Shown here: positions 126 to 8,197 of the stretch, piece after piece
Numbering within the stretch: position 1 is the stretch's first letter
How the letters are laid out: each line of letters opens with the position of its first letter
Origin: Fibrobacter sp. UWR4
GTDB taxonomy: Bacteria; Fibrobacterota; Fibrobacteria; Fibrobacterales; Fibrobacteraceae
NCBI RefSeq assembly: GCF_003149045.1
Contig: NZ_QGDU01000028.1
Span: 1-48,576, forward strand
Direction of reading: 5' to 3'
DNA length: 48,576 bases
The notes under the pieces: generated by a model
Seen by the model: the letters and a program-made list of their open reading frames with translations, nothing else
What the model was told of the DNA's origin: nothing
Database searches by the model: none
Made by a program: the position numbers and the translations under genes

Positions 126-782
126 CTACTTTTTTTCCTGGGGGACCAAGCGTTCCACAATGCGGAAGAGGTCGTTATAGATTTCCAGGAAGTCTTCAAT
201 CCAGATGGGATCGCGTTCGCCCACCACATGGAAGGTTTCTTCCAAAGTATGACGGGCATTGTACAAGCCAACCAGGCTACCTGCAGGCTGAACCACATTT
301 CCCTGATACAAGTCAGCGGCAACAAGACGGGCTCTGTAGCTACGACGCAAACGGGAAATCAAAGCCCCGCGAAGGGACAGAAGTTCCTCATGAGCAGCCA
401 GGACGTTACCATTCTTCACCCAATCTTCCACCAGACTCAGGCGACGCAAAATAGTTTCACGTTCTGTATTAGGAACAAGGGATCGCTTTTCGTTAAGAGT
501 TTTCTTGATTCGCTCAGAAATACCGCCCAGGATTTCTGCGTTCCAGAACACCATGGGATTTTCCGCAAAGCGATTATCAGTTTCCACCTTAGGAGTATGG
601 GAGGAAATCCAGCGGTCCAGCTTATCAGCCACCATCTGGGCTTCCGGCAGGCGGTCCACAGCCAAATATTCCCCAGCGCGAGTCAGCAGGTTATCTGCAT
701 AGACCATACGCCAATGAGGAAGCTTTCCGCTCTTGCGGATTGCATCAATGGACTGTTTCAATGTATCAAGACGTGTCTGCAT
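126..782 (-). CDS. Unknown cytosolic protein, last gene of the MotAB-like operon
   Basis: This is a 218-residue protein that I do not recognise. It has no signal peptide or membrane segment and looks largely helical, with many charged residues and the motifs WNAEILGGISERIKK and WVKNGNVLAAHEELLSLRG. It starts 8 bases downstream of the MotB-like gene, so it is almost certainly co-transcribed and probably translationally coupled. By position it could be a cytosolic partner of the MotA-like tail, but nothing in the sequence proves this. It ends at TAG 38 bases inside the window, 30 bases before the IS30 end. I see no clear terminator in that short gap. Confidence 0.75.
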   Translation of the reverse strand: MQTRLDTLKQSIDAIRKSGKLPHWRMVYADNLLTRAGEYLAVDRLPEAQMVADKLDRWISSHTPKVETDNRFAENPMVFWNAEILGGISERIKKTLNEKRSLVPNTERETILRRLSLVEDWVKNGNVLAAHEELLSLRGALISRLRRSYRARLVAADLYQGNVVQPAGSLVGLYNARHTLEETFHVVGERDPIWIEDFLEIYNDLFRIVERLVPQEKK

Positions 783-789
783 TAAAAGC

Positions 790-1428
790 CTAGTTAGTCT
801 TTTCCATCATCTGGAGCGGAGTCACACCGATTTCCACACGACGGTTCAGGCGGCGGTGTTCTTCACTATCATTGGGATACTTGGGCTGGTGTTCGCCAAA
901 GCCCGCTGCAAACAGACGTTCCGGCGGGAATCCTTCCTTGATTAAGGTCTTCACCACGTTCACCGCACGTTCCGTAGAAAGGTTCCAGTTGGTATATGTG
1001 GAAGACTTAATAGGAGTATCATCCGTAAAGCCACTGACCATGATAACGTCCGTAGAATCCATCGCTTCCAGAAGGCCCTTGCTAATTCCACGAATCACGC
1101 CTACACCTTCCTGAGTCAGATCTGCACCGTTAATCGGGAACAGGAACTGAGCCTGAATCTGAATCTTGCCACCTTCCAAGGCGATAAGACCCGCTTCAAT
1201 AGAAGTCTGCAAGCTCTTGGAAAGAAGGGCGTTTCGTTCAGCGGCAATCTTTCGCATTTCTTCCTGGCAGCTCAGCACTTCTTCTTCGGTACGAGTCAAG
1301 TCTTCTGCCTTCTGTTCCTTCAAGGTAGCCATTGCTACAAAGGCCAGAATAAACAGCGAGACCAGGGCCACACCCAAGTCGGTATAGGCCATCCAGGGAT
1401 TGCTGTTTTCGTCTCTCTTGAAACGCAT
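790..1428 (-). CDS. MotB/ZorB-like inner-membrane protein with OmpA peptidoglycan-binding domain
   Basis: The 212-residue protein has one N-terminal membrane helix (about residues 14-34) preceded by AYTDLGVALVS, which lines up with the MotB AYaDF segment. The aspartate at about residue 17 matches the ion-conducting Asp of MotB and ZorB. A short coiled linker follows. The C-terminal half is an OmpA/MotB domain with NWNLSTERAVNVV, the loop GFGEHQPKYPND and the closing RRLNRRVEI, the residues that grip peptidoglycan. It is the likely cell-wall anchor of a stator formed with the upstream MotA-like protein, whose stop is 3 bases before this start. It is shorter than flagellar MotB (about 300 residues) and no flagellar genes are nearby. 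A Tol/Pal-type or Zorya-type role is possible. Confidence 0.9.
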   Translation of the reverse strand: MRFKRDENSNPWMAYTDLGVALVSLFILAFVAMATLKEQKAEDLTRTEEEVLSCQEEMRKIAAERNALLSKSLQTSIEAGLIALEGGKIQIQAQFLFPINGADLTQEGVGVIRGISKGLLEAMDSTDVIMVSGFTDDTPIKSSTYTNWNLSTERAVNVVKTLIKEGFPPERLFAAGFGEHQPKYPNDSEEHRRLNRRVEIGVTPLQMMEKTN

Positions 1429-1431
1429 AGA

Positions 1432-3321
1432 TTATTCCTCGACTTTGGATTCTTCTGCAGGTACGGCAGCTGCGGAAACGGAGTGGCCTACGCGCTGAGT
1501 CTGTTCCAGAACTTCCAGGAGGATTTCCTGAGTCTTGACCGCATTTTCCATGAGCACTTCGCTGGCGCGTTCGTGGAAGGCTTCCAGAGACTGGTTGAGA
1601 TGTTCGATGAAGTTTTCTTCTTCATCACGTTCAGCAGTATCACCGCTGAGCTTTTCAAGGATAGTTTCCAGACCAGCACGGAGCATTTCCAGGTTGGCGC
1701 TCAGTTCGGACTGGTTTACACGCATCAGTTCTGCGGTTTCTACAATGTTGCCGCCAAGAGCGTCGGTTGCTTCCTTTTCCTTGACCACACGATTGTCAAT
1801 GCTTTCAGTGAGAGCCTTCTGGGCTTCAAGCAGCACGGAAGAGGTTTCGGAAAGCTTCTGGAAAGCAGCCAGAATATCGTTGGAAAGAGTCCCAAGCTTT
1901 TCGGAAACAGAGGCGGAAAGTTCTGCAGAACCAGCCTGAGCCTTTTCTGCAACCTGAAGGGCAACATTCTTGAGAGTTTCAAGACCTTCACGCTGTGCAT
2001 CCACATTGGAGGTAGCACGTTCTTCCAGACGTTCCATAAATTCGTTCCACTGAGCGTTGGACTGCTTTACCTGATCGGCAATGGATTCAGCAATGCTGGT
2101 AGAAGAATCGGCAAGAGAACTCTGGGCGGATTCACTGACCTTGTAAAGGCCATCATAGACACTGCCGGATACATCGCTCAGCGCAGACTTGACATCATCA
2201 GCAACGCCGTTCAAGCCAGCCTTTACTCCAGAAGCAATATCACCAAGACCATTATCCAAAGCAGAGGAAAGGCCATTCAACTTTTCGTCCAGCTTAGACG
2301 GGATGGATTCCACGGATGCGGACAGAGCCTTCACGCTGTTTTCCATAGGAGCGAAGGCCGTGGAAATGGAAGCGCTTACAGAGTTCCCCAGATCCTTAAC
2401 TGCATTATTCATGCCGCTCATTGCAGTTGCCAGAGATTCGTTGAGAGTCTTCACGGAGGTCGACATATCTGCGGAAACCTTCTGGACGGAAGCATTCACG
2501 CTTGCAGAAACCTGCTCAACGGAAGCGGACACACTGCTATTCATCTTGGCGGTAGTAGCGGACAATTCCTCCCCTACCTTGTTTACGACGCCGGTAAGGC
2601 CTTCCTGCACGGAAGCGGTAACAGCAGCCAAGTTCTTCTCTACACTTTCGAACAGACGTTCAAGACCAGTCTTGTCGGATTCTTCTTCGGGAACATCGCC
2701 CTGCATATCCAGAGTCAGGGCATCCAGACGAGCCATGAAACTATCGCGGGAAGCGATCATCAAGGAACGAGTTGCATTCAGGATCAATGCGGCAAACAAG
2801 CCACAGAGGGAAGTACCGAAGATACCCTTCATGTTCTGGAACAAGTGCTGGATGGTATCCAAAGTGCCCTGGGTCGTTGTATCCATAGCGCCACCAGCTG
2901 TCGCGATGGAAGCCATGAGACCGAAGAAGGTGCCCATCAGGCCAAGGAGAATCACCGTACCGCCAGAACTGCGGGGAACCTTGATTTCCATATTGTTATT
3001 CAGGACTTCGTAGGCGATGGGAGAATCCAGACGGATGTTCTTGCTCAGAAGACGCTTTGCAAGAGCGATACGTTTTGCCACTACGCCATCACCAGAGATT
3101 CCATAAATACCGCGGCTCTCGCAAGTTTCAAGAACGGAAGTTTCTGCAGCCACCTGCTTAATCTTCTTGAGGGCGACGACCTGTTCCACGATGAACACCA
3201 CGAAGATGGCGATCATGATCATCCAGCCAAACAGCGGAGCGCCGAAATAGCTAGCGCCTGCCAATAGAACCGCAAGGCCCACAATTGTTAACAACAAGAC
3301 GGATGTGAATGTATTCTTCAT
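1432..3321 (-). CDS. MotA/TolQ/ZorA-like proton-channel protein with a long repetitive helical tail
   Basis: The 629-residue protein has four predicted membrane helices at roughly 5-26, 29-50, 120-143 and 166-190. The third contains LLGLMGTFFGLM, the signature of the MotA/TolQ/ExbB channel family. After about residue 200 the remaining 430 residues are soluble and extremely rich in Ser, Ala and Val, with repeated phrases such as VSASV. Between about 275 and 430 hydrophobic residues recur on an 11-residue period (e.g. VKTLNESL, MSGMNNAV, LGNSVSASI), as in hendecad coiled coils. MotA is about 290 residues; a long cytoplasmic helical tail is known from ZorA of Zorya defence systems. It probably forms a ring with the MotB-like product of the next gene. 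The RBS and ATG lie close to the stop of the preceding gene. Confidence 0.88.
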   Translation of the reverse strand: MKNTFTSVLLLTIVGLAVLLAGASYFGAPLFGWMIMIAIFVVFIVEQVVALKKIKQVAAETSVLETCESRGIYGISGDGVVAKRIALAKRLLSKNIRLDSPIAYEVLNNNMEIKVPRSSGGTVILLGLMGTFFGLMASIATAGGAMDTTTQGTLDTIQHLFQNMKGIFGTSLCGLFAALILNATRSLMIASRDSFMARLDALTLDMQGDVPEEESDKTGLERLFESVEKNLAAVTASVQEGLTGVVNKVGEELSATTAKMNSSVSASVEQVSASVNASVQKVSADMSTSVKTLNESLATAMSGMNNAVKDLGNSVSASISTAFAPMENSVKALSASVESIPSKLDEKLNGLSSALDNGLGDIASGVKAGLNGVADDVKSALSDVSGSVYDGLYKVSESAQSSLADSSTSIAESIADQVKQSNAQWNEFMERLEERATSNVDAQREGLETLKNVALQVAEKAQAGSAELSASVSEKLGTLSNDILAAFQKLSETSSVLLEAQKALTESIDNRVVKEKEATDALGGNIVETAELMRVNQSELSANLEMLRAGLETILEKLSGDTAERDEEENFIEHLNQSLEAFHERASEVLMENAVKTQEILLEVLEQTQRVGHSVSAAAVPAEESKVEE

Positions 3322-3332
3322 TTTTCACCTGC

Positions 3333-4241
3333 TTAGGCCTTAGGAGAGGCCACTGTTTCAAACAAATTCAACTGACCACGGTTAAAGCCGCGGAGGAACA
3401 AGGCCCACTTGCTCTGGTACCATTCAATGACCTGAATGGTAAGACCGCGGGCATAATCGCAAAAATCATCAGTAAAGGCCAGGAAGCCGTTTTCGTAAGC
3501 GTAATGGGGATTCCAGTAGCGACCTACATTTCGTGCGCAAGAAGTAGCAGAACTGTAGTAGTGTCCAGAACCCTTGGTAGCAAATGCCGCTGCAAAACGT
3601 TTCTTGGCAAGAGCATTCAGAGAACTACGCAAGGAAACCACCATGGAGTTTTCCTTATCCCTAAGGGAGGCTTCCAGACTGGGCAAGAGTTTGGATACGG
3701 CATCCACAGCGGATTCTCCGTGCCAGTACTTGCACAATTTTTCCTGTAGCTGCATCACACGGCCATGCATACGCACAAACAGCGGTTCTGCATCGCTGAC
3801 CAGCAAATGGATGGTAGCGGAATAGAACGCGTTAATGTCCTGCTTGTTATTCTTTACGGTAAGAGTCCAGCCCTTCTCCTCGTCATGCTGGAGGAAATCT
3901 CCTCCCTCGAGAAGCAAGCGCGTCACTTCTTCCGTAGAGAAGCGCTGCATCCACTTGGTGCGGAACTCGTCATAAAGTTTATTGGCATCCGCGATGATCT
4001 GAGGGAAACTGGCATCGGCCAGTTTCCATGCGGTATCACTGTAGGAAATCAATTCCGAGGATCCAACTGTTGCAGTCGGGTCGTTCAGCATGGCATCCAG
4101 ATGTTCGTAAAGAACGATAGACCACGTCACCATCATGGACTGGGACAAATTAGCCACCATAGATGAACGGTTCGGTCGTACGTTCAGACGGACACTGCTG
4201 CCCGTCATCTTACGAATAGATCTGCGGAAGGAATCTTGCAC
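3333..4241 (-). CDS. Unknown cytosolic protein of the MotAB-like operon
   Basis: The protein has 302 residues, starts with GTG and has AGGAG about 7 bases upstream, so this start is well supported. There is no signal peptide or clear membrane helix. It looks helical, with a basic N-terminus (RRSIRKMTGSSVRLNVRPNR) and an aromatic, Tyr/Trp-rich C-terminal half (RYWNPHYAYENGFLAF). I do not recognise a family. It sits 11 bases upstream of the MotA-like gene and 8 bases after the beta-helix gene, so it belongs to the same transcript. A cytosolic component or regulator of the stator is a guess from position only. Confidence 0.8.
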   Translation of the reverse strand: MQDSFRRSIRKMTGSSVRLNVRPNRSSMVANLSQSMMVTWSIVLYEHLDAMLNDPTATVGSSELISYSDTAWKLADASFPQIIADANKLYDEFRTKWMQRFSTEEVTRLLLEGGDFLQHDEEKGWTLTVKNNKQDINAFYSATIHLLVSDAEPLFVRMHGRVMQLQEKLCKYWHGESAVDAVSKLLPSLEASLRDKENSMVVSLRSSLNALAKKRFAAAFATKGSGHYYSSATSCARNVGRYWNPHYAYENGFLAFTDDFCDYARGLTIQVIEWYQSKWALFLRGFNRGQLNLFETVASPKA

Positions 4242-4249
4242 TTAGTCTC

Positions 4250-4969
4250 CTAGAATGCAGTTTCGATGCGCTGCCAGATGGAGCGGTTCACGCGCTTGTT
4301 CTGGCTAGCCAGTTCTTCGGATTCCTTACGGATATCAGATTCAAGATTGTTCTTGACCAAGGACTGATCACCTTCAAACTGACCACCAGCTTCCAGATAC
4401 AGACCATAGACGTTATTGGAAATCTTGGTCTCTGCAGAGATTGCCTTACTTGCACGAGCAGAAAGAGCAAAACGGTTGCGGTTGAATTCGCAACGAGACA
4501 GGAAAATTTCGGGAGCGTCGTCCAACCACAGTCCGTAGTAGTTGTTCACAAAATGGACATTTTCAAAAATGCCCTTGGAACGGAACACAGTATTGCGGAA
4601 TGCATTTTCCACCACCAGGTTCTTCACTTCGAAGGGGCGGTTCAAAGAAATGAAATGGATGCCGTTCCAGCTATAGGACGGATTCTGACTGCGGAACACC
4701 ACAGGCTTTTCTTCGGAGCCCTGAATACGTACCGTACCGCGGAACGTAATCTTGGCATATTCTCCCATAAGGACGGTCACCCCAGGTTCAATGTTCAGAG
4801 TGTCGTTAGCGGAGAACACCACGCCCATTTCAAGCAGGTAGGGACTTTCAGAAGCGAGCAAGTTTACCTTGCCGTTTTCTACCTGAGGGAAAGGTCTTTC
4901 GCCAGCAACAGCCAAAGAGGCCAGAGCGAGAAGGCCAGTAAGACAACGAGTCAACTTAGCAAAGCGCAT
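4250..4969 (-). CDS. Secreted right-handed parallel beta-helix protein
   Basis: The 239-residue product opens with a Sec signal peptide (basic start, then LTGLLALASLAVAGE, probable cleavage after AVA). The mature part has short beta-strand repeats with the spacing of a parallel beta-helix (VTVLMGEYAKITFRGTVRIQG, cut here into one rung pair, then FENVHFVNNYYGLWLD and SRCEFNRNRFALSARA). Such folds often bind or cleave polysaccharide, but no pectate-lyase catalytic motif is visible. It overlaps the preceding lipoprotein stop by one base (TAATG), showing translational coupling. It is therefore a periplasmic or exported member of the MotAB-like operon. Confidence 0.82.
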   Translation of the reverse strand: MRFAKLTRCLTGLLALASLAVAGERPFPQVENGKVNLLASESPYLLEMGVVFSANDTLNIEPGVTVLMGEYAKITFRGTVRIQGSEEKPVVFRSQNPSYSWNGIHFISLNRPFEVKNLVVENAFRNTVFRSKGIFENVHFVNNYYGLWLDDAPEIFLSRCEFNRNRFALSARASKAISAETKISNNVYGLYLEAGGQFEGDQSLVKNNLESDIRKESEELASQNKRVNRSIWQRIETAF

Positions 4970-5796
4970 TAAAATTCACTCCTCAGCTTAATCTTCTGGA
5001 TGACGTGCATATCGGGAATAATGCTTCCGGAAACGATGTCATTCATCTTCAAGTCGCCAGAAAGTTCAATGCTAGCGTTCACCAGGACGCCATGAGTTAC
5101 ATCAAACAAAATGTCACCGGAGCCCAGAATGAAACCGTTGCTTTCCATCAGCACATCGGAAGTGGAATCTGCTGTTTCCCTGTACTTCAGGTTCATACCC
5201 ACGCGGGCCATCTGTACGCCGTCGTGAACGTACTGTTCCTTAAAGGTAAAGGTCTTGTACACCGTAGTGTTGCCGTTACGCCCCGGAATTTCAGTAGGAC
5301 GTTCCCAGGTTTCGCCAACGGAAACAGCCTTACCCGGAAGGATGGGCTGAATCTTCAGGAACAGACGGACCAGGTTCAGAGCTTCTGTTCCCAGCGTAAG
5401 GGAGTCTTCCAGGATTGCAGAACTGATCATGCCATCCTTAGCCATCTTGTACTGGAAATTTTCGGTAGCGACAGCCTTTTCCATTTCGCGGAATTCTTCC
5501 ACGGTACGCTTGTCGGACTGATAGTCAACGGAATCCACGTTCAATTCGAACTTTGCAGTGCCATCATCGTAGGCGGTCAGCATGCTATTGGAGGCACGGA
5601 CCTGAAGGTGGGTGGTCATGGCTTCCGGAGAAGTGGAAGTGGAATCCATAGGAAGAATGGAATTCAGGTTGGATTCAAGGTGATAAGTCTGTACGGGAGC
5701 ATTTTCAGTATTGAATGCGAGGACGTACTGATCATTATCACAGGAACATAAGAAAAGCAGTGCAGCAGAGCTGGCGAGATATTTAATAAAAGTCAT
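4969..5796 (-). CDS. Lipoprotein, first gene of the MotAB-like operon
   Basis: The frame is open from 5853, but the ATG at 5796 gives a clean lipoprotein signal peptide, MTFIKYLASSAALLFLCSC, with a lipobox ending at Cys19. The longer start would lie inside a terminator hairpin, so I prefer 5796. The mature 257 residues are mostly beta with alternating hydrophobic residues (FILGSGDILFDVTHGVLVN, SIELSGDLKMND), resembling lipid- or ligand-binding beta-clam lipoproteins. I cannot assign a function. It leads the six-gene operon and is coupled to the beta-helix gene by TAATG overlap. Confidence 0.82.
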   Translation of the reverse strand: MTFIKYLASSAALLFLCSCDNDQYVLAFNTENAPVQTYHLESNLNSILPMDSTSTSPEAMTTHLQVRASNSMLTAYDDGTAKFELNVDSVDYQSDKRTVEEFREMEKAVATENFQYKMAKDGMISSAILEDSLTLGTEALNLVRLFLKIQPILPGKAVSVGETWERPTEIPGRNGNTTVYKTFTFKEQYVHDGVQMARVGMNLKYRETADSTSDVLMESNGFILGSGDILFDVTHGVLVNASIELSGDLKMNDIVSGSIIPDMHVIQKIKLRSEF

Positions 5797-5813: not shown

Positions 5814-5852
5814 GACATAAAAAAACAGGGTCCCTCGCTTGCCGAGAGACCA
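5814..5852 (-). terminator. Rho-independent terminator of tadA
   Basis: On the minus strand GGTCTCTCG-GCAAG-CGAGGGACC forms a nine-base stem with one mismatch, followed by CTG and a run of seven T. It lies directly after the tadA stop and ahead of the lipoprotein start at 5796, separating tadA from the MotAB-like operon. Confidence 0.8.
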
Positions 5853-6846: not shown

Positions 6847-7839
6847 CTACTTTAATCCACGGCCATAGGCACAGTTGTTATCTTCGTGCATGTAGTCGCC
6901 ATCATGATAGTAGGCAGCACGGGCTCGACAACCACCACAACGGTCGTTATACTTACACTTGCCGCAGGAGCCTTCGTAAGCCTTGGTACGAAGTTTCTTG
7001 AACACCTCCGCATTTGCCCAGATTTCGTCAAAGGGGGCATCATGAACATCGCCGGCAACTTCCATCATATAGGCGCAGGGGCGAACCTCTCCCACCGGGT
7101 TAATGATACAGTAGTCCAAGCCGGCAAGGCATCCGCGAGTGTAGCGGGTCTTAATATCCAGCTGATCAGCAATACGCAGGAACTGAGGGGCACATGTAGG
7201 CTTTACAGGAATACCCAAAGTTCGGCTCTTTTCCATAATGTCACGGAGAAGTTTCTCGTATTCCGCCACATGGAGCGCATGGTCTGCAATTTCTTTACCA
7301 CGACCAACAGGCACCAGGAAGAAAATCTGATGGTTTACGGCACCTATACTCTTGACCCAATCCATAATGTCGAAAATTTCAGACTGATTCCAGTCCATGA
7401 TGGTGGTGTGAATCTGGAACGGGAGACCTGCGGCCTTACAATTTTCAATGCCGGCCATCGTCAATTCAAAAGCATTTTCCAGACCGCGGAACTTGTTATG
7501 GCGAGCAGGATCGATACTGTCGATGCTGATTCCCATGGCCATGGCCCCGGCCTTCTTCAGATTCTGGGCCATTTCGGCGGTAATCATGGTGCCATTGGTA
7601 CCGAAAACCGGACGGAGACCAACGCGAGAAGCATGTTCCACCAATTCCACAATATCCGGGCGAGTCATGGGTTCGCCACCACTAAAGATCATAATCTTGA
7701 AACCGGCCTTGGCAATTTCATCAATAAGCTTGTGGCCTTCTGCGGTCGTAAGCTCACGATCCCTATGGTCACCGGCATTCTGGTAACAATGCTTGCAGGT
7801 CAGGTTGCACTTATTGGTGGTCATCCAAGATACGATCAT
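6847..7839 (-). CDS. Radical SAM/SPASM protein of the NirJ2/AhbC-AhbD group
   Basis: From the ATG at 7839 the protein is 330 residues. AGAGGA lies about 5 bases upstream, whereas the longer start at 7890 would sit inside a terminator stem. Cys11-x3-Cys15-x2-Cys18 binds the SAM iron-sulfur cluster; IFSGGEP is the usual glycine motif. The C-terminal SPASM-like part has CLAG, CAYM and CGKCKYNDRCGGC for further clusters, and the closing GGCRARAAYYHDGDYM is typical of NirJ2-type proteins. Relatives act on heme precursors (removal of acetate or propionate side chains from siroheme-derived intermediates). hemL lies 1.6 kb upstream, which fits tetrapyrrole synthesis, but the exact reaction cannot be read from sequence. 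Confidence 0.85.
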   Translation of the reverse strand: MIVSWMTTNKCNLTCKHCYQNAGDHRDRELTTAEGHKLIDEIAKAGFKIMIFSGGEPMTRPDIVELVEHASRVGLRPVFGTNGTMITAEMAQNLKKAGAMAMGISIDSIDPARHNKFRGLENAFELTMAGIENCKAAGLPFQIHTTIMDWNQSEIFDIMDWVKSIGAVNHQIFFLVPVGRGKEIADHALHVAEYEKLLRDIMEKSRTLGIPVKPTCAPQFLRIADQLDIKTRYTRGCLAGLDYCIINPVGEVRPCAYMMEVAGDVHDAPFDEIWANAEVFKKLRTKAYEGSCGKCKYNDRCGGCRARAAYYHDGDYMHEDNNCAYGRGLK

Positions 7840-7868
7840 GATTATCCTCTTTTTATTACAATCGCAAA

Positions 7869-7902
7869 TATAAAAAATGGGATTCCCCATCAGGGAAACC
7901 CA
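7869..7902 (-). terminator. Rho-independent terminator after the small Cys protein
   Basis: On the minus strand GGGTTTCCC (7901-7893) pairs with GGGGAATCCC (7888-7879) with one mismatch, followed by ATTTTTTATATTTG. It follows the stop at 7931 and precedes the radical SAM start at 7839, so the two genes are probably not one simple transcription unit. Confidence 0.65.
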
Positions 7903-7930
7903 TTCTAGTATTGATTGAAAACGAAACTAA

Positions 7931-8197
7931 TTAAAGTTCAAAATCGAAATCGCCGTCGTCTTCCAAATCATCACAGGACTTATTTGCAAAAGCCTTGTCA
8001 TAGAAATAGGTGGTAACACCATCTTCGTCAGTGCACTTCAGGACAGAACCGCTGGGGCAGCCAGAACCTTTCTTAGCGGTCATTTCCATGACGACACCTT
8101 CGTCTTCTTCTTGCTGGCTAACGCAGCGTTCATCCACATTAGCCTTATTGCTTGCAGTATTGTCCATTTCAGCACAAGTATGGGTGTTCATTTCCAT
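7931..8197 (-). CDS. Small acidic Cys-containing protein, unknown
   Basis: An 88-residue product with five cysteines (8, 25, 47, 55, 75) and a strongly acidic tail (DDLEDDGDFDFEL). The central part (GCPSGSVLKCTDEDGVTTYFYD) looks like a small beta fold, cut here only for description. The in-frame codons upstream read LFVSFLFCLADV, which looks like a signal-peptide core but has no ordinary start codon; an unusual start such as ATT is not excluded. It lies just upstream of the radical SAM gene, yet a terminator separates them. I do not recognise a family. A peptide substrate for the radical SAM enzyme is possible but weakly supported. Confidence 0.55.
   Translation of the reverse strand: MEMNTHTCAEMDNTASNKANVDERCVSQQEEDEGVVMEMTAKKGSGCPSGSVLKCTDEDGVTTYFYDKAFANKSCDDLEDDGDFDFEL

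What the first reader, a model, noticed from the sequence alone, without database searches (positions are those of the whole stretch)
126..5796. A six-gene MotAB-like envelope motor operon without flagellar or known Zorya effector genes
Seen: a MotA/TolQ-type channel protein with four membrane helices and a 430-residue tail is followed directly by a MotB-like protein with the membrane Asp and an OmpA peptidoglycan domain. Both sit in one transcript with a lipoprotein, a secreted beta-helix protein and two unknown cytosolic proteins; overlaps such as TAATG show coupling. Known: MotAB-type pairs power flagella, Tol/Exb and Zorya anti-phage systems, and ZorA carries a long helical tail. Inference: this set could be an ion-driven machine that links the cytosol to the wall and an extracytoplasmic beta-helix protein. 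It may act in gliding, secretion, envelope upkeep or defence, and it lacks ZorC, ZorD and ZorE.
Basis: partly seen in the sequence, partly recalled or inferred. Interest (0 to 1): 0.75.

Follow-up and report, generated by a model that had tools for sequence, protein, structure and literature searches.

The report
Zorya-III-like motor operon in Fibrobacter
A six-gene Fibrobacter operon encodes an ion-driven, wall-anchored membrane motor whose four-gene core is a distant relative of the Zorya type III anti-phage system, yet it is inherited like an ordinary core gene set across a whole bacterial class, and two lineages keep its tail and cytosolic partners while lacking the motor.

Summary
The six minus-strand genes are real, tightly packed (spacings -1 to +11 bp) and set off from the upstream tadA-like gene by a terminator-like hairpin. 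All six recur in the same order in every Fibrobacter locus examined.

MotB-like is clearly closest to ZorB of Zorya III. The channel half of MotA-like matches ZorA of Zorya III, and the 218-aa protein matches DUF2894, by profile comparison. The 302-aa protein matches DUF3348 only marginally, though predicted helix order agrees. Curated HMMs for DUF802, DUF3348 and DUF2894 do not fire, so this is a divergent relative, not a Zorya III locus as defined.

It behaves as a core gene set: 120 of 168 phylum genomes, confined to one class, with the few misses there all in incomplete genomes. Two lineages lack MotB and the channel helices yet keep the membrane-anchored tail and both partners. I favour an ancient envelope machine related to Zorya III over a mobile defence system. 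Function is untested.

The parts
4969..5796 (-). Lipoprotein, 275 aa, signal peptide with lipobox ending LCSC, weak DUF6263 match
   Evidence: DUF6263 E 1.1e-5, 25.7 bits, just under the cut-off of 26.7; conserved Cys motif in relatives; also present upstream of the tail genes in family f3 genus g5
4250..4969 (-). Secreted right-handed beta-helix protein, 239 aa, signal peptide; start overlaps the previous stop (TAATG)
   Evidence: PF13229 E 5.8e-6, over cut-off; found only in family f1
3333..4241 (-). F: 302-aa cytosolic all-helical protein in the DUF3348 position
   Evidence: found in 120 of 168 phylum genomes; marginal profile match to DUF3348; same predicted helix order
1432..3321 (-). A: MotA/ZorA-like channel subunit, four membrane helices and about 430-residue coiled-coil-like tail
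   Evidence: channel half vs ZorA of Zorya III, E 1.8e-16; below the PF01618 cut-off, 16.2 bits
2752..2967 (-). Pore helices of A (residues about 119-190): LLGLMGTFFGLM ... FGTSLCG
   Evidence: both motifs in 55 of 55 pored relatives, 65 of 65 Zorya III ZorA and 0 of 18 poreless relatives
1486..1749 (-). Conserved C-terminal module of the A tail (residues about 525-612): NQxE ... ENxxxxQEILxExL
   Evidence: kept in pored and poreless forms (profile E 1.8e-43 between them)
790..1428 (-). B: MotB/ZorB-like subunit, one membrane helix with Asp17 (codon 1378-1380) and OmpA peptidoglycan-binding domain
   Evidence: ZorB3 143 bits against 68 for the next ZorB; E 2.1e-54 vs ZorB of Zorya III
126..782 (-). 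G: 218-aa cytosolic protein in the DUF2894 position, C-terminal G[PL]YN ... DPxW ... FLExY motif
   Evidence: profile match to DUF2894 above all 150 shuffles
5829..5851 (-). Terminator-like hairpin with T tract between the tadA-like gene and the operon
   Evidence: 9-pair stem, 6 G-C pairs; 12 sites found against a mean of 7.1 in shuffles, this one the strongest

Best explanation
The operon encodes an inner-membrane, ion-driven A5B2-type motor that is a divergent relative of the Zorya type III core (DUF3348-ZorA-ZorB-DUF2894), with a lipoprotein and a beta-helix protein added in the envelope. Proposed working: B anchors to peptidoglycan; ion flow past Asp17 turns or strains the A pentamer (inferred from MotAB and ZorAB); the motion passes down the long cytosolic tail to its conserved C-terminal module, which binds F and G (inferred from their invariant linkage). 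In Fibrobacterota this is a vertically inherited core envelope machine that couples the state of the cell wall to cytosolic partners, not a mobile defence island. Shown: gene content, order, homology of A, B and G, distribution, and poreless versions. Inferred: stoichiometry, ion flow, binding of F and G to the tail, homology of F to DUF3348, and the housekeeping role.
For: B: best defence model ZorB3 1.8e-42; the nearest non-Fibrobacter places among 84,980 species' genomes are proteobacterial loci, nearly all with the full DUF3348-ZorA-ZorB-DUF2894 set. A channel half vs ZorA of Zorya III: E 1.8e-16. G vs DUF2894: E 9.6e-5 local and 1.8e-7 global; with cleaned sets the local score is 28.2 against at most 18.6 in 150 shuffles. 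F vs DUF3348: same position; score 24.0 against at most 22.0 in 150 shuffles; same predicted helix order. Core behaviour: F in 75 of 80 genus genomes, the five misses at 62-88% completeness, and in 120 of 168 of the phylum; conserved order and neighbours; the six proteins diverge in step, r 0.63-0.93. Poreless forms: 0 of 18 have pore motifs and no B is found in those genomes, but F, tail module and G persist.
Against: No functional data. Zorya III from Stenotrophomonas protected E. coli against phages (PMC8565338), so relatives can act in defence. Curated DUF802, DUF3348 and DUF2894 models do not match here. The F match is marginal: the reversed profile scores 21.5. The tail-module match to ZorA of Zorya III was exceeded in 1 of 100 shuffles. 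The F structure model is only moderately confident (pLDDT 67.6).
Confidence: 0.55

Rival explanations
1. It is a true anti-phage defence system of Zorya III kind that became fixed in the class: infection disturbs the wall, the motor fires, and F and G act as cytosolic effectors or regulators.
For: Gene order identical to Zorya III, homologous A, B and G; Zorya III tested as protective in E. coli (PMC8565338); peptidoglycan binding, tail and ion flow needed for defence in Zorya I/II (PMC11890865).
Against: Universal, syntenic and generally single-copy in a whole class, unlike typical mobile defence; tail, F and G persist in 26 genomes of lineages without B or channel helices, where a motor-triggered defence could not work as in Zorya I/II.
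Confidence: 0.27
2. Only the MotAB pair is related to Zorya; F and G are unrelated helical proteins, and the operon is a Fibrobacter-specific secretion, adhesion or envelope motor working with the beta-helix protein and lipoprotein.
For: Curated DUF3348/DUF2894 models do not match; F-DUF3348 match marginal; lipoprotein and beta-helix protein co-inherited in the family.
Against: G matches DUF2894 beyond every shuffle and collinearly over the whole length; both proteins sit in the exact Zorya III positions; the beta-helix gene is missing outside family f1 while F and G are kept.
Confidence: 0.13
3. An ordinary TolQR/ExbBD-type or flagellar MotAB motor.
For: Weak MotB_plug (0.037) and clear OmpA matches; similarity of the OmpA part to solved MotB/PomB.
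Against: A falls below the MotA_ExbB cut-off while six other channels of the genome pass it; no flagellar genes in the operon or its conserved neighbourhood; ZorB3 is by far the best B model among defence models.
Confidence: 0.05

Closest known systems
Zorya type III (DUF3348 - ZorA with DUF802 tail - ZorB - DUF2894), Proteobacteria
   Same: Four-gene order; B (E 2.1e-54) and channel half of A (E 1.8e-16) homologous; G homologous to DUF2894; long A tail ending in a similar module
   Different: No DUF802, DUF3348 or DUF2894 model match; extra lipoprotein and beta-helix genes; class-wide core inheritance; poreless relatives
Zorya types I and II
   Same: ZorAB-type motor with wall anchor and long cytosolic tail
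   Different: No ZorC, ZorD or ZorE; ZorB1/ZorB2 models score far lower than ZorB3
MotAB / PomAB flagellar stators
   Same: Membrane Asp and OmpA peptidoglycan domain in B
   Different: A has a 430-residue tail and is not recognised by MotA_ExbB above cut-off
TolQR, ExbBD
   Same: Same superfamily of ion-driven motors
   Different: B carries an OmpA domain; the genome's six canonical channels are separate genes elsewhere

Membership tests
Zorya type III | ZorB of type III | tested here: met
   ZorB3 1.8e-42, 143 bits, next ZorB 68 bits; profile-profile E 2.1e-54
Zorya type III | ZorA with four-helix channel and long tail | tested here: met
   channel half profile-profile E 1.8e-16; both pore motifs shared
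Zorya type III | DUF802 repeats in the ZorA tail | tested here: not met
   no PF05650 match in the window protein, while proteobacterial ZorA match it
Zorya type III | DUF3348 protein upstream of ZorA | tested here: inconclusive
   curated HMM negative; profile-profile score 24.0 vs shuffle maximum 22.0 and reversed 21.5; same predicted helix order
Zorya type III | DUF2894 protein downstream of ZorB | tested here: inconclusive
   curated HMM negative, but profile-profile homology above all 150 shuffles
Zorya type III | anti-phage activity | not testable with these tools
   needs plating assays
Zorya type I/II | ZorC and ZorD, or ZorE | tested here: not met
   no such models among the six proteins at E up to 10
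Flagellar MotAB | MotA family match and flagellar context | tested here: not met
   PF01618 16.2 bits, below cut-off 22.9; operon neighbours are not flagellar genes

The most novel reading that the evidence does not exclude
The conserved heart of this system is not the motor but the membrane-anchored tail with F and G: an ancient core module that works with or without an ion motor, lost its motor in two Fibrobacterota lineages, and shares its origin with the Zorya III defence system.
Probability: 0.3. Interest if true: 0.8.

Novelty: new variant of a known kind. Interest (0 to 1): 0.6.

Why it matters
No mechanism for the Zorya III partner proteins was found in the papers read. A vertically inherited relative spread over a whole class, with natural motorless versions, gives a comparative handle: it separates what the tail and the two cytosolic partners do from what the motor does, and asks whether a phage-defence machine and a core envelope machine share an origin. 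It also cautions that similarity to Zorya III models need not mean defence.

Tried and rejected
Curated HMM scans of F and G found nothing usable. Foldseek of the predicted F and DUF3348 models against the PDB gave no significant match. The S85 proteome papers mention FSU_0286, a 'fimbriae-associated' protein with an ExbB/MotA motif, which may be the A orthologue, and FSU_0151, an OmpA protein of similar size; neither could be matched (GRAVY -0.566 reported for FSU_0151 against -0.27 for the window MotB). A single origin of the poreless forms is not rejected (AU p 0.239). Correlation of divergence with the flanking genes was weak (0.11-0.49), so vertical descent rests on distribution and synteny, not on that test.

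Full report
What is there. Six minus-strand ORFs at 126-5796 were confirmed. Spacings of -1, +8, +11, +3 and +7 bp and a terminator-like hairpin upstream at 5829-5851 fit one transcription unit; no convincing promoter was found, and promoter-like sites were no more frequent than in shuffles. The window is a complete contig of the genome (G000:C28) and ends 125 bp after the last gene.

What the proteins look like. The MotB-like protein (B) has an OmpA domain, an invariant membrane Asp17, and ZorB3 as its best defence model by a wide margin. The MotA-like protein (A) has four hydrophobic helices and a tail of about 430 residues; it misses the MotA_ExbB cut-off (16.2 bits against 22.9), whereas six other channels of the genome pass it. 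The lipoprotein and beta-helix protein have weak to modest family matches. The 302-aa (F) and 218-aa (G) proteins have none.

Which system it resembles. Zorya III was defined as ZorAB flanked by a DUF3348 and a DUF2894 protein (PMC8565338). The best plasmid-collection hits of the MotB-like protein lie in loci annotated exactly DUF3348-DUF802-OmpA-DUF2894, and a scan of 84,980 species' genomes returned Fibrobacter loci and then proteobacterial loci of that type. The Fibrobacter order F-A-B-G is the same. Profile comparisons: B E 2.1e-54; A channel half E 1.8e-16; G against DUF2894 E 1.8e-7 global and 9.6e-5 local, and with cleaned alignments 1e-5 and 0.0014, with scores of 30.3 and 28.2 against shuffle maxima of 10.6 and 18.6 and only 15.2 locally for the reversed profile. 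F against DUF3348 is marginal: 24.0 against a shuffle maximum of 22.0, reversed 21.5. AlphaFold2 models of F (pLDDT 67.6) and of a Stenotrophomonas DUF3348 protein (85.2) show the same order of long helices; in residues, F against DUF3348: 29 against 8+12, 32 against 19, a loop with strand elements, 34 against 32, 41 against 26+15, and 32 against 34. That comparison is by eye from secondary structure, not a structural superposition. The last part of the A tail aligns end to end with that of Zorya III ZorA, but weakly (E 0.0042; 1 of 100 shuffles scored higher).

Distribution. F was found in 120 of 168 genomes of the phylum: 75 of 80 of the genus, 30 of 31 others of the family, both of the order, and 13 more of the class, with no hit in the other families listed. 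The misses within the genus and family have 62-88% completeness. Order and neighbours are conserved. B was found in 92 of those genomes. Divergence of the six proteins is correlated (r 0.63-0.93).

Motorless relatives. In genera g8 and g10 of the same family and in families f3, f4 and f5, A has one or two membrane helices and neither pore motif (0 of 18, against 55 of 55 pored relatives and 65 of 65 Zorya III ZorA), and no B is found in those genomes at E 1e-30. F, G and the tail's C-terminal module persist (tail module pored against poreless E 1.8e-43). In g8/g10 the coiled-coil-like tail is replaced by proline-rich IPKIE-type repeats, as if a spacer were needed between membrane and module. 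The tree puts the two poreless groups apart, with g8/g10 among pored forms, but a single poreless clade is not rejected (AU p 0.239).

Interpretation. The anatomy supports a wall-anchored, ion-driven motor whose tail reaches cytosolic partners, working like Zorya (peptidoglycan binding, tail and ion flow matter in Zorya I and II, PMC11890865). Class-wide, syntenic inheritance and persistence of tail, F and G without the motor argue for a core role over a mobile defence role; these are inferences from distribution, and no experiment was available. It fails Zorya III membership on DUF802 and, by curated HMM, on both partners, so it is filed as a divergent relative that probably works like a Zorya motor.

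Naming caution. The Zorya III paper calls the DUF3348 protein ZorF and the DUF2894 protein ZorG, while the PADLOC models carry the names the other way round. DUF names are used here for that reason.

Noticed in passing
L176, L178-L183 (genera g8/g10), A-position genes: Tail replaced by IPKIE/proline-rich repeats between one membrane helix and the conserved C-terminal module.
   Followed up: partly
window 6847-8197: A radical SAM gene with a short ORF of 88 aa upstream of it (7931-8197), with several Cys and many acidic residues; the short ORF had no match in the relatives' loci fetched.
   Followed up: no
PADLOC-DB models PDLC00652-00658: ZorF3/ZorG3 names are attached to DUF2894/DUF3348, the reverse of the published naming.
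   Followed up: no
L023:7878-9176, L034:7367-8671: In some relatives the gene after G encodes a Fib_succ_major domain protein; a convergent argininosuccinate lyase-like gene lies next or takes its place.
   Followed up: no
genomes G110 and G118: Two copies of F and of B on different contigs in these genomes; may be duplication or assembly contamination.
   Followed up: no
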